A stretch of DNA of 64,000 nt. Source: Ptychodera flava. Its lineage: Eukaryota > Hemichordata > Enteropneusta > Ptychoderidae. The position numbers and the translations under genes were made by a program. This document shows, piece by piece, positions 12,123 to 63,179 of the stretch. The stretch covers positions 27,265,832 to 27,329,831 of the forward strand of contig NC_091944.1 of NCBI RefSeq assembly GCF_041260155.1. The letters are read 5' to 3'. The notes under the pieces are model-generated. The model saw nothing but the letters and a program-made list of their open reading frames with translations. It was not told where the DNA came from and ran no database searches. How positions within the stretch are numbered: position 1 is the stretch's first letter; every line of letters starts with the position of its first letter.

Positions 12123-12584
12123 ATATAAATTTAAGACGATTCACAGAAACGAGGTTTTTTTGTCGATATCTAAAAGAAAATTATGCTGTAGAGTTGTAAA
12201 GAAGAATTTGAAGATGAAAAAGTTCACAGTGACTACCCATACTCTGCTAAACAAACATCAAAACACCTCAAAACTATACCAAAAGCCTATACTTCAGGTT
12301 CTGAACACTGTCTAGGGAATTGCACAATACACACGTTTACGTTACTACAGCCAGTCTAACCTATACAAAATCTTCCCTATCTAATGAATGAACCTGTTTT
12401 TTTTCTAGATAAACTAATCATGCCGACAAAATATCGTGTTTTTTATGGAAGCGAACATTTCGAACTTGTTAAATGTTTCTCGGTATCATCCATCTGGCAT
12501 TTTGATACCGTACAGTGTGCGACAACAATTTGGAACACTTCCATTGGTCGATTAAGTCAACGTGACTGACCATTTATACGCGTT

Positions 12585-12776
12585 AAAGGTATACAGCCAC
12601 CTGTAATCTAAATATGCCCACATATGGTCAAAGGGGCTTTCCTTGGTATTCAAAATGCCCATGTGAGGGCGCTGTTTTTAAAAAGCGGCCACCCGCTTAA
12701 AATTTGTGATTGGTTAGATTTTCTCTTTCCATGGTAACTGTAGCAAAATAGGAACAGGTGACAGTATACCTTTAAT
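12585..12776 (+). mobile_element. family B MITE in GH9 A intron 4
   Basis: About 190-bp element with inverted ends TTAAAGGTATACAGCCACC and GTGACAGTATACCTTTAA. The interior has GAGGGCGCTGTTTTTAAA and AGCGGCCACCCGCTTAAA. No such element is seen in GH9 B. Confidence 0.75.
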
Positions 12777-13688
12777 GGTGCACGTGTCGCCCTTTATTCC
12801 TTCAGTCACAGACAAATAGAGGACAGACTAGCAACGCAGCATGCCTTTTGTTTCATGGTCGTCTCGGTGGACTATTGCCTTTTCATATTAAAAAGAGTTT
12901 CAAAGATGTTAGACTTTTTGGAGACTTGTTTATGGTTGATAATTGCACGAAATTATGCAAAAAGTACGACGAGATGGCATTTTGCTGCAAGTCGCGTAGC
13001 AACCATACCTACTTTGTGAGCTCTCAGGGCAGAAACACTGCTTCACGCGAATCGAAACATAACACGCCACCAGTTTCATAAACACGTTCTTCCATGACCA
13101 ACTTGTAAAAGACGATATGTCTGACCGTAAAACATTGACCGTAACCAGAGAGTATCGATTAAAGACTTTCAAATTTTGTTCAAACACGTGCACACACATT
13201 ATGTATTCATAAAAATGTGAGAGGAAATTTTAAAATGGTAAAACACATCTCCCTGAAGCTTAAAACTTTCCTGTTTCGCCAGCACGCCAATTCCGCTTAG
13301 CACCAGACGACAACAACAACACGAAATTTGCCGAACATAATTCCGCTTCAAAATTTGCGAAAATACGGAAACTACCGAAGGATGCATGGTCGGCACTCTT
13401 CGGAAAAGAGAGGCGAGAGCTACTTGAGGCGAGGCGTACATGGAGGGCTTACGTAACCGCTCCAAACCTTGAACAATACCCGTTGCAAGTCTGTCTCTTA
13501 TTTGTCTGTGCTTCAGTGCATCCCCTGGATACGTGTCCAGAGGGCGGTGTTTCTTTAAAATATTAAAAGGTGTTTGTTTTCATTTTTTGCAGAAGGAAAT
13601 CGAGCGCGGATCTTCAGGGAAGAGGCAGTGGATTTGTACAGATTTGCGACGACCAATATCGGCACATATCCTCTAACGGGTACTATAT

Positions 13689-13812
13689 GTAAGTATTGCG
13701 CCTCCGGAGCGGATATTCGGACTCGCAAACTTTTACGATGCTTTTTTGGCTAACCACTTGTGGGGACTCGTTTTTTAAGCTTGAAACCTCTGATAATTTG
13801 ATTTCTCCATAG
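13689..13812 (+). mobile_element. remnant of family A MITE filling GH9 A intron 5
   Basis: The 124-bp intron consists largely of a deleted family A copy: GCGCCTCCGGAGCGGATATTCGG, in two parts, then CCACTTGTGGGGACTCG. GH9 B intron 5 has a fuller copy at about 39,395-39,727. Intron size at this position therefore tracks decay of one old insertion. Confidence 0.6.
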
Positions 13813-14178
13813 CAACAACAAGATTGGCGACGAACTTTTGTGGGCGGCAACGTGGTTACACCTCGCGACAGGCGAAGAGCAGTATCTCCAAGACGCGGAG
13901 GAATACTTTGAAGAGTACAAACTCAGGGGAAGTGCCTATTCCTTCGGATGGGCAGACACCAGAGAGGGGTCAAAGGTGAGACAACGACATCTAAGTATAT
14001 TCACAGGATCAAATTGAAATGGGCATCATATTCAAGATTATAGAATTACTTCCAACGATTCTAAAGCAGTGAAAAAGATATCTCTGAGTTAACAATGGCA
14101 GAGATGAGGTGATTTTTCACGTGCTCATTGAATGACTTGAGCTAAGTGTTCTTAATCACTCTCAATCTTTCGGCCCTT

Positions 14179-14548
14179 TTAAGGCTTTGTGCGCCTCGAA
14201 AGCGAAAGATGTAAAGTTTTGGTCAAATTTTCCTCAAAGAATATTTCAATGATTAGGGGGGGGGGGCTATCCTTCAAAATCAAGAATAAAAATCGGGGGG
14301 TCACCGTGCAAACTTTTGAACTAGAGAAACAAATTACTCAAGATTTACTGATATTTGAAATTCAAGATGGCCGCCATCCCTGTGTTAACTCTATGGAGAG
14401 AAAATAAAATTTTCGAATTTCGAAAAACTAAGCGGTGAAGTTTTCTTACACCAAGAGCTTTAAAATGAACCCCACAAGTGGTAGATCAGAAAAAATTGTA
14501 AAAGTTTGAGAATCCGAATATCTGTCCCCGAGGTGCGTTCTACATTTT
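14179..14548 (-). mobile_element. family A MITE in GH9 A intron 6
   Basis: Reverse-oriented copy, TTAAGGCTTTGTGCGCCTCG to GAGGTGCGTTCTACATTTTA. GH9 B has the empty site, CCCTTTTAAGTCACCGTG on its sense strand near 38,880. This is direct evidence of insertion after duplication. Confidence 0.85.
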
Positions 14549-15267
14549 AGTCACGGTTGTAACAGAGCTCATACTTAGCTACGTTGCAGAATCACAAGAG
14601 ATTACTGTCATAGAATGCAGAAACATGTTCTGTTGCTTACGCCAAATAAAATATATTATGTATTTCTGGTAACCGGGCCTACTCTTTTTAAAACCCTCCG
14701 ACCCTGAACTGTTTTCGCATTTGCAAAAGTCAGTAATAATTTTGCCGAATTTATGCGGTTTTGTCATAGGTCACAATCATATGAAAATACAAAATAAAAA
14801 CCTTTACCGACCTTTATAGTATCTTATTTCCCTAGGGCTTGTTAACGGAAAACGCAATTTATTTTGTTACGCATTATTGCGCTAGGTTCGGTCATGGTAT
14901 AATACCAAAATATTGTGTATGTCCCGGTAAGAAGGCAGGCCGTTGGCAACTCCATTTTTTTAGGACGATTAAAACCCAACGAAAAATCGGGCGTTGATTT
15001 GGCAAAATGTCTAAATTTAACGGGACTTTACTGTAAAAAACCATTAAGTTGTGAACTATTTTCTCTATTATGCCTCAGTTACTGCTGTATAAAATTACGG
15101 GAAAGACGACATACAAGGATTCATTCACGAAATACATGGACACTTTGTTACCTATGAACAGCCCTGACATGTACACAGACGGAGGTTTGTACTTCAGGAA
15201 TGAGTGGGGATCCTTACGATACGCAGGTGAGGGCGCTGACGTTGTTGTCAACGTCGCAAAACCGCAT

Positions 15268-15460
15268 TTAAAGGTATACAGTCACCTGTAATCTTAATAT
15301 GTCCATATATGGTCAAGGGGCGTTCCTTGGTATTGATAATGCTCATGTGAGGGCGCTGTTTTAAAAAGCGGCCACCCGCTTAAAATCTGTGATTGGTTAG
15401 ATTTTCTCTTTCCATGGTTACTGTGGCAAAATTGGAATAAGTGACAGTATGCCTTTAAGC
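15268..15460 (+). mobile_element. family B MITE in GH9 A intron 7
   Basis: Ends TTTAAAGGTATACAGTCACC and GTGACAGTATGCCTTTAA, with the same interior as the copy at 12,585. The GH9 B intron at this point (about 36,400) reads straight across without the element. Confidence 0.8.
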
Positions 15461-17010
15461 AGACAAGTAAGACGCGATCGTTTGGTTTTGCGGGGCTTTG
15501 CGCAGTATCAGTAGTGTTGAAATCTCTTGTGTTCGCGATGACGCAATATTCATAAACTGTGTACCCACAATTGGTTAAAGTTACTATATCTTGGTTACCC
15601 ATAGAACGGTGCTGGCACTATACAATACCGTCGGCGCGATAGTTTTGCTTTTCCACCGGAGCAAAAAGCAGTAATTCGTGAAGTTTGTATATCCAGATGA
15701 CAAACTTCGCCCTTCACCTGACCTAATAAGCCTTGAAGTAAATCCCGGTTTCACAAGAGCGCAAATAATTTGACCGACCAAGACTAAATATTGCCCAATG
15801 TTTCATGAATCTTTTGGTTCTATCCGTGAAATTTGTGCCAAACTTTAAGCAGTTCTCAGCATTTCGTCCATCATCTAGATATAAAGTTTCGTCATCCATT
15901 TCGCAGTTCTTGAAATCGTTCAAATACAACACACAGTGAGTGCATAAATACAGGGGATGCCCAGTGCATTTCACACGGCAAGCAAATAAAGCCAAACATA
16001 TCTGGCAAAAAGTGGTTTTTTAAAAATGCCAGATAGACACGTGATTCATGACACGTCACAAGTTCCCAGTTATGGATATTTCGGTACTATATGTGTTGGC
16101 CAGCAAAGAAGACGACAAAGAAATTTCTATTTGACGTCAAAAAATGTATCCAATAATAATGCCTTGATGATGTGTGACCGCTTTGCATTGTGGAAGACTG
16201 CCAAAAACCTATAATGGGGTCCTCAAATGATATTCCGTTACGCACATGTAGGCAGTAAATAAAATACTGCTCTTAAATTATTTCTCAGTGCCTCAACCTC
16301 AACTACAAAATTAGGGTTTTTAAATGGAAGAATTTCCTAAGTAGCTGTTCTGAGACACAAATACCAAACCTCTACGTGTTGTAGTTTGACGTCTCCAATG
16401 AAAAATCAAACCGATATATTTTGTTTGTGTTTTCTTAACAGCCGGAGCTTCGTTCGTTGGTTTGGTGGCCGCTAAGTACGGATTGAGACCAAATATCTAC
16501 CGGGAATTTGCTTGCAACCAAACAAACTACATGCTCGGCGACAACACAAGGCGAAGTTACGTCGTTGGGTATGGTGTAAACCCACCTTGCCGACCTCACC
16601 ACCGAGCAAGGTATTTCAATATTTGTACTATAAGACATGTATACTGATACAGCGCCCTCGGTGGCGTTAATAATCAAACATCTTTTAGCGTCCAGGTATA
16701 GGGGATGGGCTGTCAACCGAGTCTATTCATTGTGTTGTCTTCGATTTCTAAAATATAATAACAACAAAATTTGACGGTTTTCATTTATCCAGTTCCTGTC
16801 CAGAGCTTGACATTCCTTGTACGAACAAGAATAGCTGGAAGAACCCTGACTGCAATCACCACGTGCTAATCGGAGCCTTGGTCGGCGGACCAAACAAAAC
16901 CGACGACTGGGTTGACAATCGTAAAGACTACATTCACAACGAGGTGGCTTGCGATTACAATGCTGTATTCCAAGGAACAATAGCGGGTAGGTTCACAGTA
17001 GTGCTTGCTA

Positions 17011-17201
17011 AGAGGTATACTGTCACTTGTTCCAATTTTGCCACAGTTACCACAGAAAGAGAAAATCTAACCAATCACAGATTTTAAGCGGGTGGCCGCT
17101 TTTTAAAAACAGCGCCCTCACATGGGCATTTTGAATACCAAGGAACGCCCCTTTGACCATATATGGGCATATTTAAATTACAGGTGACTGTATACCTTTA
17201 A
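17011..17201 (-). mobile_element. family B MITE in GH9 A intron 9
   Basis: Reverse-oriented family B copy running from GAGGTATACTGTCACTTG to GTGACTGTATACCTTTAA. Its right TTAA is also the left TTAA of the family A copy that follows. GH9 B has only the family A copy at this site, so the family B element landed in the flanking TTAA of an older element. Confidence 0.8.
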
Positions 17202-17508
17202 GGTAGAATGCGCCTCGGGTACAAATATTCGAACTCTCGAACTTTTACAATACATTTTGGCCTACAATTTGTTTGGGGCACATTTCGGAAGCTCACAGTG
17301 TAAATACATTTTTCACCTACTTATTCCCATAAAGTCAAGAAAGGTTGACTGTCATTTTAAATGTCAAGTGTCGGCAAATATTGGGTAATTTGTTTCTGTA
17401 TGCCAAACTTTGCACAGTGACTCACTTTTTTTATTCTTGAGCAAAAGTTTAAACCACAGTCCCGGACTTTATTTAAATCTTTCAATTTCAAGGCGCGAGC
17501 TACCTTAA
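17198..17508 (+). mobile_element. family A MITE in GH9 A intron 9
   Basis: TTAAGGTAGAATGCGCCTCG to GGCGCGAGCTACCTTAA. The mirror copy in GH9 B intron 9 is at about 34,648-34,943, so this insertion predates the duplication. Confidence 0.8.
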
Positions 17509-18249
17509 GACCGATGGGTGTTTCAACGATGAACTTCCGTAGACCGCACGGGATTTTGAAATTGAAAGTGTAGATGATCAGCATTCCTCACTCCGAGAGA
17601 TCCGGATGTTGCAATTTTGAAAATACACTTTATGCTCTTCTAAAATGTGAATTGAATGTTAGATTGCTATATCTTTGGCGTGACAATAACTGTTACTGTC
17701 ATCGTTTTCTGCTTTAGAAAATAAGCATATTCGTCCTCTTTTTACGAAATTATGAAAGTATTAATGTTAGTCTTGTAGACATAATACATAGTGAGTAATA
17801 CATATCAATATATACTATTTCTAGACTACAAATTCATTGTCAGGGGTAACTCTGGATATAACACATAGATCCGGTTGGCGAGTTGAATGATATGAGTTTT
17901 AGCATGTTAGGGAGTCACTAAGTTTAATACTGGAAAACACAAGATACATTTTGTAGAACTCTAACAAGTCATTGATTGCGTCTTGTCAGGTCTTGCTCAG
18001 GCCAGCATAGACGGACAACTTCCACCAGCCTGTTACGTCCTCAGCCACGAACTGTGAATCACGGAACAAAGTCTGGGCACGTCGCGAATGAAACGGCTGA
18101 AATCCGAAATGACAATTTCCAACGGATGACGATACCTACCATGCATCTATACTTACTACTTCTAGTTCGTCATGTAATAGAATGCATTTGTTTTATCTTC
18201 TGTGATACATCTTCAACTTAGTTAGCTTTTATCTTCTGAATGAAGAAAC

Positions 18250-20678: not shown

Positions 20679-21017
20679 TAAGGCAGGATGTGCGTCCCTG
20701 GACGTATATTCGGACACTCAAATTTTACAATACTTTTCTGATCTACCACATGTGGGATGGTAGCCTCATTATATTGCAGCAAGGAGTTTCACAATTTTTA
20801 TTTTTCCGAATATCGAAAATTAATTTTTCCCCACAGAGTTAACATAGGAATGACGGCCATTTTGAATTTCAAATCTTGGTAAAAGTCGAGCGATTTGTTT
20901 TTCTAGACCCATAGTTTTGACGATGGCCCCTCACTTTTATTCTTGACCTGGTAATAGTTTTCTTAAGAAAAGTTTGAGAAAACGTTCAAGTCTTGTTTTG
21001 AATCGCGTCCTACCTTC
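20679..21017 (+). mobile_element. family A MITE upstream of MCT A exon 2
   Basis: Starts TTTAAGGCAGGATGTGCGTC and ends GAATCGCGTCCTACCTTCAA. The mirror copy in MCT B intron 1 is at about 61,515-61,858. Confidence 0.7.
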
Positions 21018-24000
21018 AAAGAACTCACCCGACTTAGCGCTGCATTTCCTGTTTGTGTCTAGATATGGCAGAATGGGGACAACTTAATTCCTTTAGCTAA
21101 TAGAGCATGTTGTACGTCTTTCTTTTTATCGTGTGCAGCATGGATAATGGAAATATATCGCGTGGTTTGGGTGATATCTACAAGCTATGGAGTTGCCTTG
21201 GCTAAAATATTCGGAAATAGGAAAACTGCTATTGCAGCAGGTGTTGCGTCATTAAGAATTTTTGCCAGCGCTTTCATGACAAAGCACTATCAATTATACA
21301 TCACTTATGGATTGATTACGGGTGAGAATACATTTACAGTTTCCGATATCAGAGAGTGCGATCTTCAAATCTACATACCGTTTGCAATTAGAAACCCTAA
21401 CCAAATATTTTTCTTTGCAAAGAAACAGTTTATTGTGCCCATTTTCTATAAACGCGATTGGAACTTATTTGGGATAATCGGACTAACATATTTTTCAAAT
21501 TTCTCAAAAGCGTTAGATGCCATATAGCTGAATGTTGTAACATTAAAAGTTACTCATGAAAGCAAGTGTGTAACGTTAAAAGAAAAGCAAATGAGCTTAC
21601 ATCTGCAGGTTAAAACGACCTTACTTTACCATCCAATTATCCCAAATTAGTTCCAATCGTGTTTATAAACACTTGCATTTGGAATCAACGATAGTTCGCC
21701 GCTGTGACATTGCAATAAAGTGTATTACAGGCAAAATCGCTGTCTGAAACGGGAATACTATCCAAGACATACAACCAATGTATGTCAATAAATCACACGA
21801 ATGAGTGATCCCCGAACCACAACAACATCGAAAAATTGCCAATTATTCTTCTTCTGGTGCAGCCCAAAAAAAGACGAATGTAGATTTCATTATATGCATT
21901 TGAATATTTTGGTTACTTTAGAGCCCCATTAGCTATAACTTTAGATGTATTATCAATAATTTTTGCGCAGTTTGCAAAATACAATTTCTTATTATATACA
22001 CCCAACAACCAAATTGCAGTGCCTAATATTGTTAAACTTGTCAAGACAGCGTGTATGTGTATAAAGCTTAATGTAATTGATGAAAGCCGAATCCGAATTC
22101 TAGTCCGGACTAGAATTCATTTGTCAACAACAACACGCCATACTGTGTACAACGTGTCATCTTTTGAAGCCTAATACATTGTATTTAAACATACGTTTGT
22201 GCGGAGAACAAGAATTTTTTTTGTTTTCTGCAACAATAATAACAAAAAGATTATCAAAAGTTACAGTGAAGTAAAAGAAATTCGCTGTTATTTTTTTGTT
22301 TTCTTTGATTTTTTTTACATTTAATTCTCTATAACGAAAGAGGCATTAATTTAATTGTCTGCTTTATCATACAGGAATAGGACTTGGTCTCACGAATGTG
22401 GTTTACATTGAAATTGTGAGCATGTATTTTAACAAGCGTTTATCCGTTGCTATCGGACTAGCCTTGCCAGGGACCGGCGCTGGGCAGTTATTTTTCAGCA
22501 TCGTGACTCAAATATTGGTCGACCAATACAGCTGGAGAGGAACCCAGCTGATTCTATCTGGAATAATGTCAAATGCGTGTGTGGTTGGCGCCCTCCTGCG
22601 ACCGTTGAAAAATGGACATTCCAACATGTGACATGTCAGCTGGAAATAATGATGTGACCGATTCAGGATCTAACAGAACTTTTCCAGGCTGCTTGAAGTC
22701 ATGTCTGATTGCAGTATACGATTTTTCATTATTCAAATCACCAACGTTTGTAGTAATTGGTATTATATCAATCACACTGGGTTGTGGAACAACTGCAGGT
22801 AACATACATCTTGTAAGTACAGTCACCATTGTGATTATTTTAGAGACAGAAACTCTTTTTTCTTAACCCGACCAAGGCAATAATATTGCAACCCAAAAGT
22901 TACCCACTCGAAACAGGAAGATGTAATTTCTCCCCCTTGGTTTTTTCGCTTTTACACTTTAATAATCACTATTTTGTAAGGGGAATTTTGCCTCTGTGCC
23001 AGTTACTCTGCTTTTATGACTTCTTTTATATTATTAAAGGAAATCAACAGCAGTACCTAAAGTAGCCAACAACTGACTTTCATTTTGCTGGTCACGAAAA
23101 ATCAAATGTGCCATCAACAATCCCTCTGTATTAATGGTATAACTGACGTTCTGTAAGCAAACATGGCTGACACGCCACTGTGCCCTGATGTGGATTTATG
23201 GAAATATTCGGTGACATAGTAAGGGTTATAAAGTTAGCAAATTTGAAAGTTGTACATGGCATCTGACTGTTACTCCCTTATAATTTACGGATTGTAATAT
23301 CAGGCATAAAAATATTGGATGCCATCTATGATCATATTCAAATTAATTACATTGATTGAACAATTTTCTCGAGGTAAGGCGAGCACGTGATTACGGTATC
23401 TCTGACACCCAAAGTGCATACATACCGGCTGTCATGGGATTGGCGCTGATGATAGGTCAAACAGGTGTAGGTGCTGTTAGTCACATGAAAAATCCCTCCG
23501 TTTATACCCTATACTCTGTGCATGTTTCTGGCCCGTATATCCTTAATATTTAGCATTTACATAAGAAACTTTACAGGTAAAAAATTGATTAACTTCCTTT
23601 ATGTTGAATGGTGCGTTGTACGTCGGGAGATATAATGCCATCGGTTATCTTTTACAAACGTGTTGCACAAAGCACAAACTGGTCTCACAGTGATACATTG
23701 AAACAAACCGACCCACCCTAGACAACCAACTCGAGAGCTGAATGCGTTGGATGGTCGTCACTGTTTCGTAATCAGCAGAACACGTTCCGTCGTAGCAATG
23801 TTACTTCAGATGATCACTTGGAAATAACGGTACAATGTCTTCTCACTGTAAATTATAAACCCTTTCCTCAGCGAGGTACTTGATAAAAAAGCCATTGGGT
23901 GGGCAGAGAGTGTGGTTTAGTTATCTCGGAGTTTACCGATGGGGAGGGCAAAGCGGTTGACATAATGGCAGTGGCAGGTTTTACTGTTATAAACTCAAAC

Positions 24001-24765
24001 AAAGAGTTATTTGAAAGACATCTCTGTTTACAATATCTCGAAATCAATTGACTTACTCTTCCCGACCTGTATGTGTACGTGTAAAACGTATATGTGCATT
24101 CCTGACAGTGTACACCCGTAAATATACATTTATCCTCTATATGATTTGTCAATATATTGTATCTTATCACAAATTATAAGATCAAAGGAAATTTCTATCG
24201 ACCATTTATTATTGTTATTTTTTTCCTAAGAATGCCTTCCACAACAAAGAGAAAAAAACCTCTCTTCATTATCAACAATCTATTCTCGTCATATTCCGTA
24301 CGCAATTTTCGTCAATCATTCCCGAATAATCGTTGTTTCGTGCCTTCTAACGCACAGCCCAGATCGTCTCCATCGCCATATTTGGTATATGTAACGGTGG
24401 ATATGTGGTACTCAGTTCCATCATGGTGAAGTAATCCTTCGGAAGTGACAGACTGGGGCATGCCATGTCTCTACTAAAGTCATGCAAGGAATGATGACGC
24501 TATTTTTCAGTCCGCCAGGAGGTAAAATTATCGTCTTAATGTTGAGAGATCGACACAAGTGTGTTGGGACAGACAGCGCCACGCATTTGCTAAAGTATGT
24601 ATGCACCTTTTTGACGAGTACAATGACAGCATTGCTACATTGAGCGAGTGACATATTATTCTCTAACATTTTTTCAGAAAAACAAATGTGTGCCCCCTCC
24701 CGAGCATTGCCATGGTTACCGTCATTTCTCCGTATCAGTGAATGATTTCCACAACAGAATGTCCT

Positions 24766-24905
24766 TTTAAAGTTGTACGCGCCTCGAAACTGAAAGATTT
24801 AAAATTTTGCTTGAATTTTTCCTAAAACAAACTTTAAATCATTGTGTGCCAAAATTAACCCATAGAAATCAGAGCTCATCTCCTAAACTTTTGGTGAAAC
24901 AATTA
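24766..24905 (-). mobile_element. partial family A MITE in MCT A intron 5
   Basis: Begins TTTTAAAGTTGTACGCGCCTC and is recognisable for about 140 bp. It corresponds to the insertion seen at 57,245-57,575 in MCT B. Confidence 0.5.
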
Positions 24906-24914
24906 ATTCGTTCT

Positions 24915-25053
24915 GCCGATCAAAGCGGAGGCTTATCGCCTTGACCAAATAACTCGTTAGTAGCTCATAAGGTTGTGTCCGCCTTTTACCTTATGACCTG
25001 CTAACGAGTTATTTGGTCAGGGCGATAAACCTCCACTTTACGGTCAATGAATA
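24915..25053. repeat. foldback element in MCT A intron 5
   Basis: Two arms of about 60 bp, including TTATCGCCTTGACCAAATAA and CTCGTTAG, pair around a short centre (TGTGTCCGCCTTTT). No such hairpin is seen in MCT B intron 5. It is probably a small palindromic MITE. Confidence 0.75.
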
Positions 25054-25510
25054 ATGAAGCTTTTGCACGTTCGATGATATCCTTTTGTTTTCTGTAGGTT
25101 GGAGACGCGATAGTTCAAACATTTACGATGGATATTATTGGTTAGCTGGAGGAATCGAAACACTTGCATCTGTGCTAGCTGCGATACTTCCACAAGTGGA
25201 TCGAATTAGCAAGCGAGGTCAAAGTGAAAGAAAGTTGTAATCGAGAGATACAGACGCAGACATGAAGGTGGCACACAAGTTAAACGAATGAAATCATCGC
25301 CAAAACTGGACATAGAGGGAGTCTATATTGAAGACAATAAAACGGCTTTTAAAGTAACACAGGAAAATGTTGCTGTTGGAAGAGTCCTTATGTGAAAATA
25401 AGTCAAAATGATATATTGCCTTTAAATCTGTACACTGTGTTCCCAACATCAATGTCCCAAGAAGACTGACACGGAGACCGTGAACGTGACAAACAACTGT
25501 CACACTTGTT

Positions 25511-34020: not shown

Positions 34021-37000
34021 TCACAGTTCGTGGCTGAGGACGTAACAGGCTGGTGGAAGTTGTCCGTCTATGTTGGCCTGAGCAAGACCTGACGAGAAGC
34101 AATCAATGACTTGTTAGAGTTCTACAAAATGTATCTTGTGTTTTCCAGTATTTTGTCCGATTTCTAACATATTGACTCCCTAACATCATGCTAAAACGCA
34201 TAGCGTTCAACTCGCCAACCGGGTCTGTGTGTTATGCCCAGTGTTACCCCTGACAAATGAATTTAGTCTATAAATAGTATATATTAATATATTATATTTA
34301 TATATTAATATATTATATATTATATTATATTATATATATTATTCTCACTGTGTATTATGTCTACAAGACTAATATTAATACTTTGTATATCATCATAATT
34401 TCATAAAAAGAGGACGAATATATGCTTATTTTTTTAAAGCAGAAAACGATGACAGTAAGAGTTATTGTCCCGCCAAAGATATAGCAATCTAACGTTCAAT
34501 TTGCATTTTAGAAGACCATAAAGTGTACTTTCGAAATTGCAACATCCGGATAATCTCACGGACTGAGAAATGTTGATCATCTACACACATTCAATTTCAA
34601 AACCTCGTGCTGTCTACGGAAGTTCATCATTGAAACACCCATCGGTCTTAAGGTAGCCCGCCCCTCGAACATGAAATATTGGGACTGTGGTTTAAACTCT
34701 TGCTTAAGAATAAAAAAAGTGAGTCACAGTACAAAGTTTGGCACTACAGAAATACATTACCAACTATATTTGTCGACACTTGACATTAGAATGACAGTCA
34801 ATCTGTCATGACTTAATGTGAATAAGTCGGTGAAAAATTTATTTACACCGTGAGCTTCCGAAATAACCCCCCCACAAATTGTAAGCCAAAATGTAATGTA
34901 AAAGTTTGAGAGTTCGAATATCTGTAGGCGCATTACCCCTTTAAAGCAAGCACTGTACTGCGTACTTACCCGATATTGTTCCTAGGAATACAGCATTGTA
35001 ATCGCAAGCCACCCTATTGTGAATGTAGTCTTTACGATCATCAACCCACTCGTCGTTTTTGTTTGGTCCGCCGACCAAGGCTCCGATTAGCACGTGGTGA
35101 TTGCAGTCAGGATTTTCCCAGCTATTCGTGTTCGTACAAGGAATGTGAAGCTCTGGACAGGAACTAAATAAATAAAAACCATCAAATTTTGTGGCTATAG
35201 AAATTGAAGACAAAATAATGAATAGACTCGGTTGACAGCCCATCCGTTATCTGCACGCTAAAAGATGTTTGGTTATGAATGCTACCGAGGGCGTTGTAGA
35301 AGTATGCATGTTTTATAGTAGAAATACCTAGCTCGGTGGTGAGGTCGGCAAGGTGGGTTTACACCATACCCAACGACGTAACTTCGCCTTGTGTTGTCAC
35401 CGAGCATGTAGTTTGTTTGGTTGCAAGCAAATTCCCGGTAGATATTTGGTCTCAATCCGTACTTAGCGGCCACCAAACCAACGAACGAAGCCCCGGCTGC
35501 AAAGAAAACACAAAAAACCAAATCGGTTTGATTTTTCATCGGATGCATCAAACAACAACACGTAGAGGTTTGGCATTTGTGTCTCATGGAACAACTTATT
35601 AGACTCTTCAATTAAAAAAAACCTTGATTTTGTAGTTTCAATTAAAAGAAATTACAGTCCTGTGGTTGAGGGATTGTGGAATAGTATACCAATATTTTAT
35701 TTCTTTTCTACATCATGTGTGTAATTGAATTTCACTTCAGGATTATGGATTTCTGATTTTTCCCACGATGCAAAGCGGTCACATCATCTCATCATAGCAT
35801 CATGATGATACATTATAAGATCATTATGATATACATATTTTGACGTTTCATAAAATTTCTTTGTGCGTCTTTCTTGCTAACAAATGTAGTACCGAAATAT
35901 CCATAAATGGGATCTAGCGACGCGTCATGAATCACGTATCTATCTAATCCCCCTAGCTAACCCCCCTCTAAAAACACTTACAGAATTAACATTTTATTCG
36001 ACATCGTTCCTTTGACGTTGTGCTTAATATCAGGGTTTTCGAGCGATTCCGAAACCTTATGTTAAGGGACAGGTTCAAGGGCTCAATTCCCGCGTCATAT
36101 TGGTATACAAAATTACTAATTTAATACTGCTTTTCGCCCCGGAGAAAAAAGCAAAATAGATTATAAATAAAACTGCAAGAGTATAGTGCAAGAGCTATTC
36201 TGTTGGTAAACGCGGCTGATGTGCTTGTGTTTGCCATATATGGGTATATGCAAAAGACAACAGAGTAACCAATAGACCACAGACGAGAGTATGCAGCGTA
36301 TGTATATTGCATCAATGCAAGCTAGAGCTTTCAACGCTGCTTACACTGAGCAAAGCGCGGCAAAGCCACGCGACCACGTGTTACTTGTTTACTCAAAGCA
36401 ACCGGTTTTGCGACGTTGACAACAATATGAGTCATGGAAACGCGCCCTCACCTGCGTATGGTAAGGATCCCCTCTCATTCCTGAAGTACAAACCTCCGTT
36501 TGTGTACATGTCAGGGCTGTTCATAGGTAACAACGTATCCATGTATTGCATGAATGAATCCTTGTATGTCATCTTTCCAGTAATTTTATACAGCAGTAAC
36601 TGAGGCAAAATAGGGAAAATAGTTCAAAACTTAATGTTTTTCACAGGTGAAGTCCCGTGACATTTAGAAATTTTGCCAAATCAACGCTCATTCTTCGTTG
36701 GGTTTTACATCGTCCTGAAAAACAAAATGAGGTTGCTAACTGCCTGCCTTTTTAAAGTGACATATTCTTTTTTAGTCCCCGCGGACGAAGTCCGGCGGGG
36801 ACTTATAGATTGGGTCCCGTCTGTGCGTCCGTCCGTCCGTCCGTCCGTCCGTCATCAACAGTTTCTCAGACACTGCTGAACCAATTTTGTTCAAACGTGG
36901 CACAAAGGCATAGCACTATGACCTACAGATGCACGTCGATTTATTTTGTGATACGATCCAATATGGGCGCGAGGCGGCCATTTTGTTGCGATTTTTCATG

Positions 37001-40000
37001 TCTTTGGACCATAACTCAGACATCCTTGAGCAGATTCTGTTCAAATTTGGCACAAAGGCACAACACTATGGCCTACAAATGCATGTCAAATTATATTGCG
37101 ATACGATCCAATATGGGCGCGAGGCGGCCATTTTGTTGCGATTTTTCATGTCTTTGAACCATAACTCAAACATCCTTGAACCGATTCTGTTCAAACTTGG
37201 CACAAAGGCATAACACTATGGCCTACAAATGCATGTCAAATTATATTGCCATACGATCCAATATGGGCGTGAGGCGGCCATTTTGTTGCGATTTTTCATG
37301 TCTTTGGACCATAACTCAGACATCCTTGAGCAGATTCTTTTCAAATTTGGCACAAAGGCATAACACTATGGCCTACAAATGCATGTCGTATTATATTGCG
37401 ATACGATCCAATATGGGCGTGAGGCGGCCATTTTGTTGTGATTTTTCATGTCTTTGGACCATAACTCAGACATCCTTGAACCGATTCTGTTCAAATTTGG
37501 CACAAAAGCAAAACATTATGCCCTTCATATGAACACCAATTTATTTTGTGATATGATCCAATATGGCCGACAGGCGGCCATTTTTTTGCGATTTTTTCAT
37601 GTCTTTGAACCATAACTCAAACATCCTTGAACCGATTTTGTTCAAACTTGGCACAAAGGCAAAACACTATGGCATACATATGCATGTATCAATTAACCTT
37701 GCGATAGGATCCAATATGGCTGCAGAACTGCCATTTTGTTGGAATTTTGCATGTCTTTGAAGCGTAATTCAAAGGTCATTACTTCCCATTTTGTCCAAAC
37801 TTGGTACCAAGATCAAGCACTATGGCACACATATACATGTCAATTTACTTTGTGACATGTTCCAATATGGCTGCCAGATTGTCATTTTTTTTCAATATCG
37901 CTGCCAGATGGTCATTTTTGGGTTTTTTCATGTCTTTGAGGCTTAATCATATGCAAATATTCCTTAACCAATGTTGTTGAGACTTGGTACAAAGATAAAG
38001 TACTATGGCATACATATGCATGTCTACTAATTTTGTGCTATGATCCATATGGTCAATAGACAGCCATTTGATTTCAATTTTGGTGTGATTTTTTATGTCT
38101 TTGAAACATAAACATAGGTCACTGTCCCTCGTTGGACTGATTTTGTTCAAACGTGATATGAAGATAAAATACTATGGCTGCATTCTTGTGCACATTAATT
38201 TGTTTCATTATATGATCCGAAATGGCTGATTACAACAACATACCCGATCCCATACCATTTCGAAAATTCCACCAAACCATGTGTATAGCATGTGCCGTCA
38301 TGACACTAGAGGCAGTGAGGGCATCGTTATGTGTGATGTAATCAAAAGTTCCTTCAGTGGTCATTACCGGCAGAGATGAGTCATTTATTGAACGTTCCTC
38401 AGATTCAAGTCACAGGCCTGATGCACCCGTTGCATCAATGTCATGTCAGCTATCTAGACCACAGCTACCTAGAAACCAAAGATTATAACAAAATGGACAA
38501 GCGGGGACTGTGTCATCAACGATGACTTGTTGTATTATAGAGTGACTGATCCTAGCGCATAATGCGTAACAAATAAATCGTGCGTTTCCGTAAAAAAAAA
38601 CAAAAAAAACCAGGGGAAATAAGACAGACAAGTCGCCATTATTGTTAATTTTTCATTTTCTTGAGAGTGTGACCAATAAAAAAAACCCTGCAAAATTCGG
38701 CAAAATCATGACTTTTTTTGTATGATCTTTGAAAATGCGATTTCAATTTTAATAGAGTAGGCCGGGTTACCAGAAATACACATTTGGCGTAAGCAACAGA
38801 ACATGTTTCTGCATTCAATGACAGTTATCTCTTGTGATTCTGCAACGTAGCTAAGTATGAGCTTTGCTACCACCGTGACTTAAAAGGGCCGAAAGATTGA
38901 GAGAGAGAACACTCGGCTCAAGTCATTCAACGGGCACTTGAAAAATCGCCTCATTTGTGTCATTGTTTACTCAGAGATATCGTTTTCACTGCTGTAGAAT
39001 ACTTGGAAGTAATTATATAATCTTGAATCTGATGCCCATTTCAATTTGATCCTGTAAATATACTTTAGATGTCGTTGTCTCACCTTTGACCCCTCTCTGG
39101 TGTCTTCCCATCCGAAGGAATAGGCACGGTCCTTGAGTTTGTACTGTTCAAAGTATCCTTCCGCGTCTTGGAGATACTCCTCTTCGCCTGTCGCGAGATG
39201 TAACCACGTTGCCGCCCACAAAAGTTCGTCGCCAATCTGGTTGTTGCTATGGAGAAAAAAAATCAGAGGTTTCAAACTTTCGGTCTTATTTTAGAAACGT
39301 GGCCCTTTTTGAGGATGACAAAGCACATGTTTTTAACCTTTTCACAATCTATTAGATTTTAACAGATTCACACTTATCATCGATTATAATTAGTTTGGGC
39401 CCAACCATGATTGTGAAAGTGTTAATTATTGCAAAGTCAACTTTCTCTTTCGAAACAAGGAATAAAACCAGGGTTCGCCGCGCAAATTTTGGGACTACAG
39501 AAACAAATTACCCATATTTACCCATATTTGACATTCAAAATGGCTGCAATGCCTGTGTTATCTTTAGGGGAGAAAATTAAAATTTTTGTTTTTCAGAAAA
39601 TCTAAGTCAATGAATACCATTTTTACTCCATGAGCTTCAAAATGAGCCCCCACAAGTGGTAGGCCAAAAAAGCATCGTAAAACTTTGAGAGTCTGAATAT
39701 TCGCCCCCGAGGCGCATTATACCTTCTGGTCAGTAGCTATACTTACATATAGTGCCCGTTAGAAGGATATGTGCCGATATTGGTCGTCGCAAATCTGTAC
39801 AAATCCATTGCCTCTTCCCTGAAGATCCGTGCTTGATTTCCTTCTGCAAAAACAATATTAAACACTCCGTATGTAATCAGAATTTAAAACAATGCTTTTT
39901 ATAAAAAAAAATCACTGCTGACATTTATTTGAGACATGCACTGAATAAAGGAAGACACACTCAGTAAAGAGTATCAATGGTCAGTCACGTGGACTAAATC

Positions 40001-43000
40001 GACCAATGAAAGTATCTCAAGTTGCAATCGCGCACTGCACCATGTCAAAATGCCAGATGGATTCAAGATGTCTTAGAAACGTGTATTTACTATCATTGTC
40101 TCTTGTGTCAGCGTGCAGGAAGCATTGCTGCATCGGTGACGTCATACAAATTGTATTCAAAGATTTGCTTAAGGCTGGTTTTTATTTTATCGCTAATACC
40201 AAGAAACATTTAACAAATTCGAACGTTCGGTTCCTCTCAAGAACAATATTCTGTCGGAATTACGAGCTTCTCTGAGCAAAAGTTGGTTTCATATTATTAG
40301 ATTGACCCAGAAAGACTGTGTAACAGTTTTCCTGGCTGTACTAATATGTGTGTTTTGCAATTCTCTGGACGGTGTTCAAAGACTGAAATATAGGGTTTTG
40401 GTAGAGTTTTTAGGTGTTGTTAATATTTGTACACGCGAAGGTAGCGTTTCTGTTGAGTATGGGCAGTCACTGTGAATCTTTTCATCTCATTGGTCTTACT
40501 GACTTTCTTTGAAATATTATCGAAATGAAAAAAAATCTGCGAATCGTGTTAAAGTGATTCTTCACAAACAATCCTCCATTATTTCATTTTCCCATGTCAC
40601 TTATATCTTCAGCTCACGTGATTAGAAAGGTCAACTGATGTGTAAATGAGAGAAAGTTTCCCTGCGGCGAAACTTTCCCTGCGGTTGCAGAGAGATACAT
40701 CTTCTACTAGGCTTGCGTGGTTAACTTACTCCCAGCATCTTTGTAGGCGACGGAGCACGTCGCGAGGGCCGCCGCAGCGAGAGACGCGACATCAGAGCCC
40801 GGCACAGTGTCGTTGACCCTGAACGGCTCTCTGTGGTACACGATGTCTTCTGGTCGTTGCCAGAAACGGTGATCAAGATCGGCGTCTGCTACCTAAAAAA
40901 ATTACCACATCGTTCTGTTAGGATTACGCAATTTGGTAACACTATCAATTCAGAGCCGTGTCCAAAAAGGGGATCCAAAATAAGAAGCTTACATTCTTCA
41001 AAGATTAGAAGAAATGTCAGTCTTAGCGTGTCCACGGAAATCTCAGGTGTTACCGATTCAAAATGATGGCATTGAGCTTGACCTTCAGGACGAACCTTCA
41101 ATGTTTTTGGTGGGAGAACGATTTTTCTTCGTGATTCAAAGAAAGGATTTCCCCTTTTGCATGTCTTACATGATTCTGAAGGTAATATTTCAGATGGAAT
41201 TTAATGGGATAAAAAAGTAATATTTTCAGAGAAAAACAAACTTGGGTTTGTAAATAATGCATTAGATAGGTTTACAATTTGCTTTTTCCATACAAGCTAT
41301 TTATGAATTTATAATTCTCAGCTTTTTTCCTGATTAAGTTTCGCAGATAGCCTCCAAATACAACCAAGATTGCAAGGCCCCAATGCGTTTCTTTTATTCA
41401 CTCAGCAGTTAATATTGTTTGTGTTGTACAAGCAAAAGAATTTCTTTTTATAGCTAGCCCGACACCGACAATCTGAAGATCCGCGACAATTTCTGCTACT
41501 AGGGTTTTCAATAACATGACTGTCTGTCACTCGATAAAGATGTCAGCTCTCCTGAACATTAAGACGAAGCTTTTACCTGGTAGTAATATTCATTTGGGCC
41601 GGTGTGACATTTCGTGAAATATTCACAGACTCCCTCGAGGGTGCTGAGCATGTCGTTGTACACGCCTGCGTCTTGGTATGCATACGGGAACTCGATGAGG
41701 CTCCATGCCAACACCGATGAAGAAAATGCCATCGGAAAGTTGAACTTCACGTTGTCGCCGGCTGGAACGGTGAAGAAAAGAGGCAGCAATTGGCACAAAG
41801 ATTAAGTCATTAAGGCCCCATTAGCTGTGTCATATTTTTCCGTTATTTTCCGATAAGATGTTTTGATGTCCAATTCAACTTACGTAAAAGTAGTGACCGA
41901 GGTGGACCACAGAACATTGGCGATCAACGCACAACTTAAATTTTAACAAATAAATATTATTCGCGAGTTGCAATTCAAATATGGCCGCCGCAAATGTACG
42001 CGTGTTAGGCGCCCGAATTAAATTAAATTAAATCCTGCACAAGGGATTGGAATGGTGACATTTTCAAAGAAAATAACGGGAATTCAAAACATCTTTCTGG
42101 AGATTGGGTGATATTTTTGATAAGAAAAGGGCTTTCAGCAACGAGCGTTGGACTTTCGAAATGTAGCACACTGCGACAATAGCAAACGGCTAAAAAAGTT
42201 AAACCAACAGGGCAAAGGACCAATATTATAAAAAAGGCATGGAACGAAATTCGAAGGACAATTATCATCAAATTTCCATCGATACTTTGTGTTGTTGTGG
42301 GTCACAAGTCTATGCAGAAAACGGTAAGTTAGATCACACAATCATAAGTATATTTTCCTGCAATGAAGCGCACTCTACGGTCACTGAACAGAACTATCTG
42401 AAATATCTCCATTTCATAGTACAGATGTAACTACAAATATATCTGTTCTTATAATAAATTTTTTGGATTTTGTATATGTTTTAAATGATTGATTGATTGA
42501 TTGATTGATTGAAAGTGTGCATGTAAAGAGGTATGATAAATCAATTGATTTCGAATTCCTATATCCTCTATTTCGCCACAACATCGTTTTGGCAGTTTGC
42601 CACATGCTCAGGGTTAAACCTTGCCTACCGTCGTACCACCCGCCGGTAAGATCCTCGCCTTCTAATCCGCTGTCTGACAGACAGGAACTGGCCCTCCATG
42701 GAAGCTTTTGTTCCGACTTGGTAATATTACCCGACTTTTGCGCTTCAAAGAACAGTAGCGTGTAATTGAGCAGCTCACCGAAGTTGTGGTGGAATTCTGT
42801 TGACAGAATGGAAACATAACTGTCATCGTCGTTGGGTTTGTAACTGTCGAGGGATGGTGACCTTCTCTAGCCATGGACAACGGTTGGCTTCACATATCCC
42901 CCATTCCCTACCCAAGTGAGAAGGTGTTAGTAATTCAGTCCGCATGCGCACCGTTTTCTATCTGCACGCATATCAGTAAATCCTACATAATCCAAAAGAA

Positions 43001-44582
43001 AAACGTGAAAATAATCATTTTATGACGTATATAGCCTGTCTCGTACGTGATGAGAACCAATTTTGGCCATTGTCGGCAAACTAGAGATGTACCCGGCCGC
43101 AGCTTACAGAACAACATCGACAAGTATTCATGTTTAGTTTCAGTGTTTTCACTATACGCCTGTTGCTCAATGATGACGACACAACTTTTAAAAGAGAATG
43201 GTTGCAATTGATTGAGTAAAATAAAAACAGAACAGTGGAAAGTTCGAGTACTGCACATTATACTGATCATATAGGTCATAAATTATAGTGATATAACTGA
43301 CTCTTGACATTCTGAGTAAAGAACACTGCATCTAGGTCAATTTTCATTTCGTTACCACAGAGCCAAATTATGAAACAATTTACCAGCTACTATAAAAAAT
43401 ATAGAAAATAGATATCAGTTTAAACAAGCTCTTAAATCTTGGATTTCAAACCACGAATAGTGATCTTTTTCTCATTTTACCCTCCGTCCTCGTATAATTT
43501 AGATTTTTTGTTTATTTCATTCTTAGTTACCACCCACCAGACCCTAGACACTCATTAGCTTTGCATTAGCTATTTTCTAGCACACTCATTCCTCTTTCAA
43601 AAGAAAAACATCCTCATTCTAGTATACGTAAGGTTTTACAGACTTCACAAAATGAAGTCTAACTTGCAATTCTCGTTTTTCACATCTGTGACACATGGAA
43701 GTCAAACAACCAAAGAGAAAATCCAAACAGCGAGAACGCACCCTCTGTTATTATTGAGCTTTAGGTGGAATTTGAATTTATGTACATTTCTTTGAATACT
43801 GTGAAAGTATAACAACTATTAACTATGTTAACTATTAACTTGTAACTGTTGCTTGCTCTCTATTGGTGTGGTTTGTTAAATCTTGCACATTTTTTATAAG
43901 TCAGATTTCCGAAAGACTGGTCAACAGTTTAATCAAAAGATATATAAGATCGGTTCTACCATCAACCAACGACATATGCTAATTTATGTATGCTAATATA
44001 TGCTTATAAGCTAAAGGTAATACGACCACTGATCAAGAATTGGCGTACGGTACGACCTGCTTAATTTGACACGCATCATAAGCTTATCTTATGCCGCCAT
44101 TTTGAGTTAGTGTTGTTCAAGAAAAGGTTGTCATACCTTGACGTTAAGACTGCTAAATAGTCCCTTTTAATATGGATACTTTCCATGGCGATTATACTCA
44201 TGGAAGAATATTACAAAATATTCGCATTTTAAAATCTGAACCTTGGGATGGATACACGTCTCATAGTTTTACTAAACAAATGAAAAACCTTAACACGATG
44301 CGAAGTTGAAGCAGCAGGTTGAAAAATGTAAAACTCACTTTCTGGCCTTGTCTGTATTGTGTACTCATCAAAATCTCCTTGGTCTCGTTTTACGGGGCTG
44401 TAACCGTCACCTTCGCCATCGTCGTCGTGTCTGTCCTCATCAACCCATTCTATGGGAGCCCTAGACTCATATAATTCGCCGCCAATGTCAGCTGCCTCTT
44501 CGTCCTCGTCTGCGGAGTCTATGGAGACAGAATTCGCTGATACCGCCATCAAAGCGAGCAATGCGAGGAAGATCAAATTCAT
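34021..44582 (-). CDS. GH9 endoglucanase-like protein, copy B, catalytic Glu replaced by Arg
   Basis: Ten exons on the minus strand: 44582-44339, 42796-42629, 41761-41577, 40892-40730, 39843-39747, 39246-39084, 36599-36452, 35496-35328, 35163-34970, 34088-34021. The phases join into 532 codons plus stop, with no break. Signal peptide about 1-19; very acidic pro-region to YSPVKRD (61-67), a possible dibasic cleavage site; GH9 domain about 82-532 with LTGGWYDAGD (131-140) and the first GH9 signature at 428-444. In the second signature the sequence is [19 protein letters not shown]: residue 496, the general-acid glutamate of the family, is Arg (AGG, 35013-35015), while Asp487 remains. If the base calls are right, hydrolysis should be lost or very weak, leaving a binding or regulatory role or a gene in decay. 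Typical animal GH9 length; no cellulose-binding module. Confidence 0.9.
34648..34943 (-). mobile_element. family A MITE in GH9 B intron 9
   Basis: Starts TTAAGGTAGCCCGCCCCTCG and ends AGGCGCATTACCCCTTTAA. It matches the GH9 A copy at 17,198-17,508. Confidence 0.75.
36774..36803. repeat. GC-rich hairpin at the head of the 150-bp repeat element
   Basis: AGTCCCCGC and GCGGGGACT arms with an inner GGAC/GTCC pair around GAA form an almost perfect 30-bp stem-loop. It is followed closely by (GTCC)n. Confidence 0.85.
36774..38240 (+). mobile_element. mobile tandem repeat, 150-bp units, Helentron/HINE-like
   Basis: Order: hairpin, (GTCC)n at about 36,825-36,852, then about nine tandem units. The word ATACGATCCA or its variants recurs at 36,951, 37,101, 37,251, 37,401 and 37,551 (exactly 150 bp apart), then less regularly to about 38,211, with sequence decay rising toward the right. 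Inverted repeat, microsatellite and 150-160-bp core repeats resemble the HINE/pearl elements of invertebrates (inference). It sits in GH9 B intron 6 and is missing from GH9 A intron 6. Each unit is 50 codons, so open frames run through it; they are not genes. Confidence 0.75.
39395..39727 (-). mobile_element. family A MITE in GH9 B intron 5
   Basis: Contains TCGCCGCGCAAATTTTGG, ATTCAAAATGGCTGCAATGC and CCCCGAGGCGCATTATACC. It corresponds to the deleted remnant in GH9 A intron 5. Confidence 0.7.
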
Positions 44583-55789: not shown

Positions 55790-56811
55790 ATGAAGAATGT
55801 CCTTTCATACGGTGTAAATATTGACATAATGGCATAAAGCTCACCAATTTAAATTGATTTCATTGATCAGTGACTCTACCACTCCATGCAGGCACTTCAT
55901 GTAATGTATTGATTTGCCTATACTTAAACATTCAATAGGGTTTTTTTTGTAAACCAAGTATTGTGTATCCTACCGGGATGCCATCTTGTATATTTCACAC
56001 CTAACAGAGGTCAAATAAAGTATGATAAAGTCGAAATATCAAGTTTTCGCATCCATTCGTTTGGTTTGAAATTGTGTCTGATATTTGACTTTCGACGTGA
56101 AAAAAGATGAAATGGCCTCAGTGCCCACTTACGAACTTAAAATTATGAGGGACATGCAAAACCAATGCGCACTACAGTTTGTGTGACACATCAGGTTCCC
56201 GTCATGTACCAAGGAAACTGTCTGCAATTCTTCCCCGTTGTAGACGTCTTTGTGAAAAATACTGTCACCTCCTGCAAGTTCGTTGTCATGCAAGTTGAAG
56301 ACAAGAAAGTCTAATGAGATATAGCTATTCCTAAAATGCATCTGAGTACCAGGTTTCATTCCTGTCAATACTGCCCCTCGGGATATCGAATCTCTAGACA
56401 GACAGACAGTCATGTAAACACAAAGATAGACAGATAACGATAAGACATAAGCTTAAGTCTGCATATGCAAAAAATGAACTGTCCAGTATTTTAATGCAAA
56501 TAGAAGCTTCTTCAAGTCATGAAATTTTATCTATACATTTTCACGAAAATTCTTTATTAACGTCTTTGTGACAGTTTTCGCACAGCTGCAAGTGTGACAG
56601 TTGTTTGTCACGTTCACAATCTCTTTGTCAATTTTTTTGAGGACATTGATGACGAGAACACAATACACAGATTCAATCAGGCGATATATAATTTTGATTT
56701 ATTTTCACATAAGCGCTCTTCTTACGGCAACATTTTCCTGTGTTACTTTGAAACCCATTTTATTGTCTTCAATATAGACTCCCTCTATGTCCAGTTTGGC
56801 GTACGTTGGTT
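55790..56811. repeat. third copy of the GH9/MCT intergenic sequence
   Basis: Same orientation as 18.25-19.09 kb. It holds the 3' UTR of MCT B, but the GH9 gene that should lie to its left is absent. Confidence 0.75.
56698..56703 (-). terminator. polyadenylation signal of MCT B
   Basis: Minus-strand AATAAA 109 nt after the stop. A second AATAAA lies at 56,553-56,558. The second one is altered in MCT A. Confidence 0.5.

Positions 56812-63179
<6,368 letters not shown>

What the first reader, a model, noticed from the sequence alone, without database searches (positions are those of the whole stretch)
34970..35163. Intact GH9 gene with the catalytic glutamate changed to arginine
Copy B reads open through all ten exons, keeps the first GH9 signature and the DAGD motif, yet its second signature reads [13 protein letters not shown]. 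The invariant general acid (Glu) is Arg496 (AGG, 35013-35015). Copy A has GAG there, two or more base changes away. An intact frame with a dead catalytic site could mean a pseudoenzyme that binds glucan, or early decay. Intact frame and lost residue are seen directly; loss of activity is inferred from GH9 enzymology.
Basis: partly seen in the sequence, partly recalled or inferred. Interest (0 to 1): 0.8.

Follow-up and report, generated by a model that had tools for sequence, protein, structure and literature searches.

The report
Acorn-worm cellulase copy without catalytic acid
One of two mirror-image cellulase gene copies in an acorn worm has an unbroken reading frame but an arginine where the enzyme needs its proton-donating glutamate, and related acorn worms carry an older, well-conserved group of cellulase-like proteins that lost the same residue separately.

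Summary
Copy B, on the minus strand, is a ten-exon GH9 gene (44582-34021, 532 residues, GT-AG at every junction, no internal stop). Residue 496 is Arg (AGG, 35015-35013). Copy A keeps Glu but has two frame-breaking 1-base indels in this sequence. The animal is the hemichordate Ptychodera flava; NCBI's model of copy B also reads Arg. Copy B also lost cleft residues W383 and R387 (E4 W313, R317). Its frame was kept by selection for most of its life: 10.7 frameshifts expected if neutral, 0 seen, P=2e-5. Yet B took 18 polarised replacements to A's 6. Copy B almost certainly cannot cut cellulose. Kept non-hydrolytic protein or early decay remains open; I lean slightly to the first. The wider result is an older, 100/100-supported GH9 clade, in species of three enteropneust families, that lost the acid independently (Ser or Lys). 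Overall it is about as conserved across species as its Glu-bearing sister. The acid was lost at least five times on the tree examined. Pseudoenzymes are known in other glycoside-hydrolase families; my library searches found none reported for GH9.

The parts
34021..44582 (-). GH9 copy B, whole gene, ten coding exons: 44582-44339, 42796-42629, 41761-41577, 40892-40730, 39843-39747, 39246-39084, 36599-36452, 35496-35328, 35163-34970, 34088-34021
   Evidence: 1599 nt, 532 aa, GT-AG at every junction, single terminal stop; Pfam PF00759 E 2.5e-118 (run on an earlier model with 24 wrong residues at the exon 1/2 junction and without the last exon)
34970..35163 (-). Exon 9 of copy B, second GH9 signature [13 protein letters not shown]
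35013..35015 (-). Codon 496, AGG (Arg) where the catalytic acid Glu is expected
   Evidence: column survey; aligns with Glu412 of termite 1KS8 (numbering counted from the alignment)
36471..36473 (-). Codon 383, AGG: W383R (T. fusca E4 W313)
   Evidence: E4 numbering
36459..36461 (-). Codon 387, CCA: R387P (T. fusca E4 R317)
   Evidence: E4 numbering
42630..42632 (-). Codon 137, first Asp of DAGD, kept
41754..41756 (-). Codon 140, second Asp of DAGD (catalytic base), kept
8110..18057 (+). GH9 copy A, ten exons in the same layout; keeps Glu, Trp and Arg at the three positions but is frame-broken in exons 3 and 5
16793..16986 (+). Exon 9 of copy [11 protein letters not shown] (GAG)
10996..11181 (+). 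Copy A exon 3, one base longer than in B; frame lost from here
13593..13688 (+). Copy A exon 5, one base shorter than in B
56700..61500 (-). Transporter-like gene region beyond copy B in the inverted duplication (318-aa open frame 59446-60402, MFS_1)
   Evidence: Pfam PF07690 E 2.4e-08, just above its cut-off
21000..25400 (+). Counterpart of the transporter-like region on the copy A arm; one exon lacks about 128 bases

Best explanation
Copy B is one half of an inverted duplication of a GH9 cellulase gene in the acorn worm Ptychodera flava. On the B branch the active centre was dismantled: the general acid became Arg496 and the cleft residues Trp383 and Arg387 were lost, while the reading frame and most of the rest of the domain were kept. 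In GH9 the glucan bond is cut by Asp activating a water while the Glu protonates the leaving oxygen (inverting mechanism). Arg cannot do the second step, so the product should be unable to hydrolyse glucan. I think it most likely persists as a non-hydrolytic, probably secreted GH9 protein: a weak glucan binder, helper or inhibitor decoy beside Glu-bearing paralogues such as P0002. This repeats what an older hemichordate GH9 clade did before. Shown: gene structure, residue changes, selection on the frame, and independent acid losses in relatives. Inferred: loss of activity, secretion, any binding role, and continued usefulness today.
For: Arg496 in an intact ten-exon frame, also in NCBI's P. 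flava model P0001, identical to copy B in 475 of its 476 residues, the other being the exon-skip junction. Three of the seven active-centre columns I listed changed on the B branch (P=0.0017, but the list was drawn up after seeing the changes). No frameshift in B against 10.7 expected under neutrality, P=2.3e-5. GH9-domain dN/dS A versus B 0.35 (95% 0.22-0.58); rough branch value for B 0.55, neutrality one-sided P=0.046. Precedent inside the same animals: an acid-less clade, 100/100 support, with members in Ptychoderidae, Spengelidae and Harrimaniidae, and cross-family identities like those of its Glu-bearing sister clade (73.0 v 71.8%, 66.6 v 64.9%). A CelR active-site mutant, whose chain reads Gln at this column, was crystallised with bound cellohexaose, so a GH9 without the acid can still hold substrate. 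AlphaFold model of the NCBI copy-B isoform keeps the GH9 fold (pLDDT 82.7; top hit 1ks8).
Against: B took 18 of 24 polarised replacements (P=0.023). Seven of its 18 fall in the 118 near-invariant columns (six are new departures; at column 452 copy A departs too), about what chance placement gives (4.7 expected, P=0.17), which is the mark of relaxed constraint. Selection on the frame may all predate the Glu loss. S94T, Q506L and A510S are not among the active-centre columns I listed, so the damage is not confined to the active centre. NCBI's isoform X2 skips exon 2 and with it the first Asp of DAGD. No expression, binding or activity data were available.
Confidence: 0.5

Rival explanations
1. 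Early decay: copy B is a redundant duplicate that recently lost constraint and has not yet picked up a frame-breaking change; the Glu-to-Arg change is one symptom.
For: More protein change on the B branch, 18 v 6; replacements in near-invariant columns at about chance frequency, 7 of 18; the sister copy A is frame-broken here and its transporter-like neighbour lacks about 128 bases, so the locus as a whole may be dispensable.
Against: No frameshift or stop in 1599 nt where 10.7 frameshifts are expected if neutral since duplication; rough B-branch dN/dS 0.55, below 1; splice sites intact; three of the B-branch changes sit in the listed active-centre columns (list made afterwards).
Confidence: 0.38
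2. Altered rather than lost catalysis: copy B acts on another bond or on activated glycosides, with the acid step done by water, the substrate or another residue.
For: Both catalytic Asp are kept, unlike three of the four members of the older acid-less clade. Acid-less GH mutants can cleave activated aryl glycosides (recalled, no call).
Against: No new acidic residue beside the lost one in the motif. W383 and R387, recalled as subsite residues, are lost too.
Confidence: 0.06
3. The Arg codon is an assembly or sequencing error, or RNA is edited back.
For: Copy A and the similar NCBI model P0003 each carry 1-base frame breaks that the other lacks, the kind of error long-read consensus can make.
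Against: The change is three adjacent substitutions with no length change, and NCBI's model P0001 reads the same Arg (it may or may not come from the same assembly). A-to-I editing of AGG gives Gly, not Glu.
Confidence: 0.04

Closest known systems
GH9 endoglucanases of animals (termite NtEgl 1KS8, earthworm 3WC3, ragworm 4ZG8)
   Same: Same fold, GH9 domain, both catalytic Asp, first signature; 1KS8 is the best PDB match by sequence of exon 9 and by fold
   Different: Copy B lacks the catalytic Glu and the Trp and Arg equivalent to E4 W313 and R317
GH28 polygalacturonase pseudoenzymes of leaf beetles (PMC6549527; abstract and passages read)
   Same: Inactive paralogues in an expanded animal plant-cell-wall glycoside-hydrolase family; they have substitutions at functionally important sites and matter for digestion when silenced
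   Different: Different family, insects; a role was shown by RNAi, which is lacking here
GH45 paralogues of leaf beetles without catalytic acid or base (DVI4, LDE9; PMC6509783, passages read)
   Same: A single catalytic carboxylate replaced (acid to Val, base to Asn) in a duplicate, with presumed loss of activity
   Different: GH45, not GH9; the passages I read do not describe a kept acid-less clade
CelR GH9 active-site mutant 7V0I with bound cellohexaose
   Same: Chain reads Gln at the Glu column and still holds a glucan chain
   Different: Laboratory mutant; the cleft residues lost in copy B were not compared between the two proteins

Membership tests
Glycoside hydrolase family 9 (fold and descent) | Match to PF00759 over the whole domain | tested here: met
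   E 2.5e-118, profile 1-443 of 444 (earlier gene model; GH9 domain the same except the last exon)
Glycoside hydrolase family 9 (fold and descent) | GH9 fold | tested here: met
   model of P0001 (copy-B isoform lacking exon 2); the 25 best PDB matches are GH9 cellulase structures, 1ks8 TMt 0.84
GH9 cellulase (active enzyme) | Two Asp of DAGD | tested here: met
   D137 and D140 present
GH9 cellulase (active enzyme) | General acid Glu in the second signature | tested here: not met
   Arg496; Glu in 165 of 175 relatives
GH9 cellulase (active enzyme) | Cleft residues equal to E4 W313 and R317 | tested here: not met
   R and P in copy B; W in 163 of 175 and R in 164 of 175 relatives
GH9 cellulase (active enzyme) | Hydrolysis of beta-1,4-glucan | not testable with these tools
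   needs expressed protein
Glycoside-hydrolase pseudoenzyme | Catalytic residue lost in a folded homologue | tested here: met
   fold by prediction only
Glycoside-hydrolase pseudoenzyme | Maintained by selection after the loss | tested here: inconclusive
   frame selected over the branch as a whole, but the order relative to the Glu loss is unknown
Older hemichordate acid-less GH9 clade (P0009, P0011, P0023, P0065) | Falls inside that clade on the tree | tested here: not met
   copy B pairs with copy A (100/99), then P0002; separate origin of the loss
Processed or dead pseudogene | Intron loss, stops or frameshifts | tested here: not met
   nine introns, open frame

The most novel reading that the evidence does not exclude
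Acorn worms repeatedly turn GH9 cellulases into non-hydrolytic proteins. One such class, with Ser or Lys in place of the acid and in three of four members without the second Asp, has been kept since before three enteropneust families split and is about as constrained as its Glu-bearing sister clade. Copy B is a second, independent and recent entry into the same state, so one chromosome may hold old and new GH9-derived binding proteins.
Probability: 0.45. Interest if true: 0.65.

Novelty: new member of a known kind. Interest (0 to 1): 0.5.

Why it matters
Dead paralogues of plant-cell-wall enzymes are known to matter for digestion in beetles (GH28; PMC6549527), but my library searches found no report of this for GH9, a cellulase family present in many animal phyla (hits). 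Here there is an older acid-less GH9 clade that is still well conserved and, in the same species, a fresh independent loss beside a close copy that still has the acid. The pair allows a direct test of what a cellulase fold is kept for when it no longer cuts: binding, inhibitor decoy, or helper of active paralogues. It also warns that gene names such as 'endoglucanase A-like' may overstate cellulolytic capacity in hemichordates.

Tried and rejected
A 22-base micro-exon between exons 1 and 2 was my own error.

A supposed five-residue deletion or hidden micro-exon between exons 6 and 7 was dropped: relatives P0002 and P0004-P0006 share the spacing.

That Glu and Trp383 are lost together: Fisher 3.7e-7 ignoring descent (6 of 8 acid-less rows against 5 of 164 others; one of those five is an alignment gap). 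Among five independent pairs, however, Trp goes the same way in 3, the other way in 1 and does not differ in 1, and so few pairs cannot reach significance. Not claimed.

That the triple base change is a special event: runs of three adjacent changes occur twice in coding and 20 times in introns between the copies. Not claimed.

That B's replacements avoid or seek near-invariant columns: 7 of 18 against 4.7 expected, P=0.17. Neither claimed.

Copy A as a settled pseudogene: its two breaks are absent from the similar NCBI model P0003, which instead ends early in exon 7. Length errors in the consensus, segregating lesions or a third copy are all possible.

Whole-genome search was not possible (no genome held). 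Library searches for GH9 pseudoenzymes or hemichordate GH9 gave nothing on the point (listings, plus passages of PMC12198962, PMC6509783 and PMC6011409); most subscription journals are not in that library.

Limits of the survey: each protein search listed only its best 120 hits (of 1423 and 1912), so 175 distinct proteins were examined. Some come from unnamed metagenome sources (jgi, lgn, ena). For one search, four incomplete rows were left out (P0001, P0003, P0024, P0166). P0001 and P0003 were left out of the near-invariant columns.

Full report
What is there. The window lies in the genome of the acorn worm Ptychodera flava. The closest proteins to the spliced copy B are NCBI P. flava models. 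P0001, 'endoglucanase A-like isoform X2', is identical to copy B in 475 of its 476 residues; the other is the junction left by skipping exon 2. The window holds a large inverted duplication. GH9 copy A is on the plus strand (8110-18057) and copy B on the minus strand (44582-34021), each with a transporter-like region beyond it (Pfam MFS_1, E 2.4e-08, just above its cut-off).

The finding checks out exactly. Copy B has ten coding exons with GT-AG junctions, 1599 nt, 532 residues and one terminal stop; residue 496 is Arg, AGG, at 35015-35013. Copy A has GAG at the same codon. The difference is three adjacent bases, two of them in the codon. By alignment the residue corresponds to Glu412 of termite NtEgl (1KS8; numbering counted). 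The catalytic roles, two Asp for the base side and one Glu as acid, are stated for GH9 in PMC4221708 (passages read) and, for another GH9 enzyme, by homology in PMC6096475 (passages read).

More of the active centre is gone. Polarised against the paralogue P0002, copy B also changed Trp383 to Arg and Arg387 to Pro. In T. fusca E4 these are W313 and R317 (numbering from the 1JS4 alignment); that they line the +1 side of the cleft is recalled, not from a call. In 173 relatives, 118 columns of the GH9 domain are at least 90% conserved. Copy A departs at 16 of them and copy B at 22. The six new to B are S94T, W383R, R387P, E496R, Q506L and A510S; column 452 also changed on the B branch, but copy A departs from the family there too. 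That makes 7 of B's 18 polarised changes in near-invariant columns, against 4.7 by chance (P=0.17).

Is the frame kept by selection? Over 4340 alignable intron bases the copies differ at 14.0% and by 71 indels, 58 of them not multiples of three. Coding sequence differs at 6.4% with four indels. If copy B had been neutral since duplication, about 10.7 frame-breaking indels would be expected on its branch, and none is seen (P=2.3e-5). The test assumes half the indels fall on each branch, and counts only intron stretches that align at 70% or better. GH9-domain dN/dS between the copies is 0.35 (95% 0.22-0.58). Of 39 replacements in the domain, 18 are on the B branch, 6 on A and 15 unpolarised. The 18:6 skew has P=0.023. 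Rough branch values are 0.55 for B and 0.18 for A, found by sharing nonsynonymous changes 18:6 and synonymous ones equally; B differs from neutrality at one-sided P=0.046. So B was constrained for most of its life but more loosely than A. These data cannot say whether constraint outlasted the loss of the Glu.

Copy A is the mirror case. It keeps Glu, Trp and Arg, but in this sequence it has one extra base in exon 3 and one missing in exon 5. A similar NCBI model, P0003, lacks both breaks yet ends early in exon 7. A transporter-like exon on the A arm lacks about 128 bases present on the B arm. Whether A's breaks are real, segregating or consensus errors is open. A published P. flava genome was built from PacBio reads of one male (PMC11175523, passages read). 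I could not tell whether the window is from that assembly or whether P0001 is an independent reading of Arg496.

The acid has been lost before. Among 175 relatives (120 listed hits from each of two searches, overlapping) the column reads E in 165, S 3, K 2, R 1 (P0001 itself), A 1, N 1, gap 2. A tree of 59 rows built without the catalytic columns gives a 100/100-supported clade of P0009 (P. flava, Ser), P0011 and P0065 (Glandiceps talaboti, Ser and Lys) and P0023 (Saccoglossus kowalevskii, Ser). Its sister clade P0124, P0123 and P0125, from the same three species, keeps Glu, though P0124 has other changes near it. These species belong to Ptychoderidae, Spengelidae and Harrimaniidae. Three of the four acid-less members have also lost the second Asp of DAGD. 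Copy B sits elsewhere, with copy A and then P0002. On a 172-row tree the fewest changes at this column is five: that clade, copy B, Saccoglossus P0008 (Lys), Lingula P0070 (Ala) and Pinctada P0122 (Asn).

The old acid-less clade does not look like decay. P0009 and P0011 are 73.0% identical over the domain, against 71.8% for their Glu-bearing counterparts P0124 and P0123; P0009 and P0023 are 66.6%, against 64.9% for P0124 and P0125; P0011 and P0023 are 63.9%, against 65.5% for P0123 and P0125. Against this reading, P0065 is less conserved (60.7% to P0009, 63.7% to P0011), and at the 118 near-invariant columns the acid-less members depart more often (P0009 9, P0011 11, P0023 19, P0065 29) than the sister clade (P0123 4, P0124 8, P0125 8) or the family median (4). 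So overall constraint is similar, but it has moved away from the family's conserved sites, as expected if the job changed. P0009 is modelled with high confidence as a GH9 fold (pLDDT 89.5; best PDB match TMt 0.97).

How it probably works. Without the acid, GH9 inverting hydrolysis of an unactivated glucan should stop. Binding can survive: the CelR active-site mutant 7V0I, whose chain reads Gln at this column, was solved with bound cellohexaose. Copy B also lacks two cleft residues, so any binding is likely weaker or changed. The protein begins with a signal-peptide-like stretch and an acidic, KR-containing region (sequence; my reading, not tested), so it is probably secreted. My preferred reading is a non-hydrolytic secreted GH9 protein that binds glucan weakly, helps or shields active paralogues, or is on its way to such a role (0.5). 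Early decay is close behind (0.38).

Place among known things. By descent and fold it is GH9; by residues it is not a GH9 cellulase. Pseudoenzymes are known in beetle GH28 (PMC6549527: abstract and passages), and GH45 duplicates that lost a catalytic carboxylate are described in beetles (PMC6509783: passages). Searches for GH9 pseudoenzymes or hemichordate GH9 returned nothing on this point in their listings. PMC12198962 mentions hemichordates once in a list (passages), and PMC6011409 has none of the six searched terms. The library lacks most subscription journals, so absence there is weak evidence.

Noticed in passing
P0009, P0011, P0065, P0023: Older hemichordate GH9 clade with Ser or Lys for the acid and, in three of four, no second Asp of DAGD; overall about as conserved between species as its Glu-bearing sister, but with more departures at family-conserved columns.
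   Followed up: partly
P0008 (Saccoglossus), P0070 (Lingula), P0122 (Pinctada): Further separate losses of the GH9 acid (Lys, Ala, Asn); P0139 (Haliotis) keeps Glu but has lost the second Asp.
   Followed up: partly
window 1-64000: Large inverted duplication with blocks of uneven identity, e.g. 285 bases at 99% (10308-10592 and 42125-42409) where most listed long arms are 83-97%, which may mean patchy gene conversion.
   Followed up: no
21000-25400 (+) and 56700-61500 (-): Transporter-like regions (MFS_1) flank both copies; one exon on the A arm lacks about 128 bases present in the 318-aa open frame of the B arm.
   Followed up: partly
9259-9336 (+) and 43664-43741 (-): Stretch inside intron 1 whose translation is identical in both copies over 26 residues, ending in an acceptor-like site; possible regulatory or exon-like element. 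Not used in P0001 or P0003.
   Followed up: partly
36865-37759: Tandem array of a 150-base unit (5.9 copies, 87% match) inside intron 6 of copy B.
   Followed up: no
P0001, P0002, P0003, P0009, P0124 (contig length 40,314,384) and P0004-P0006, P0011, P0065, P0123 (24,582,668): GH9 genes with and without the acid share one contig length in each species, suggesting one chromosome or cluster.
   Followed up: no
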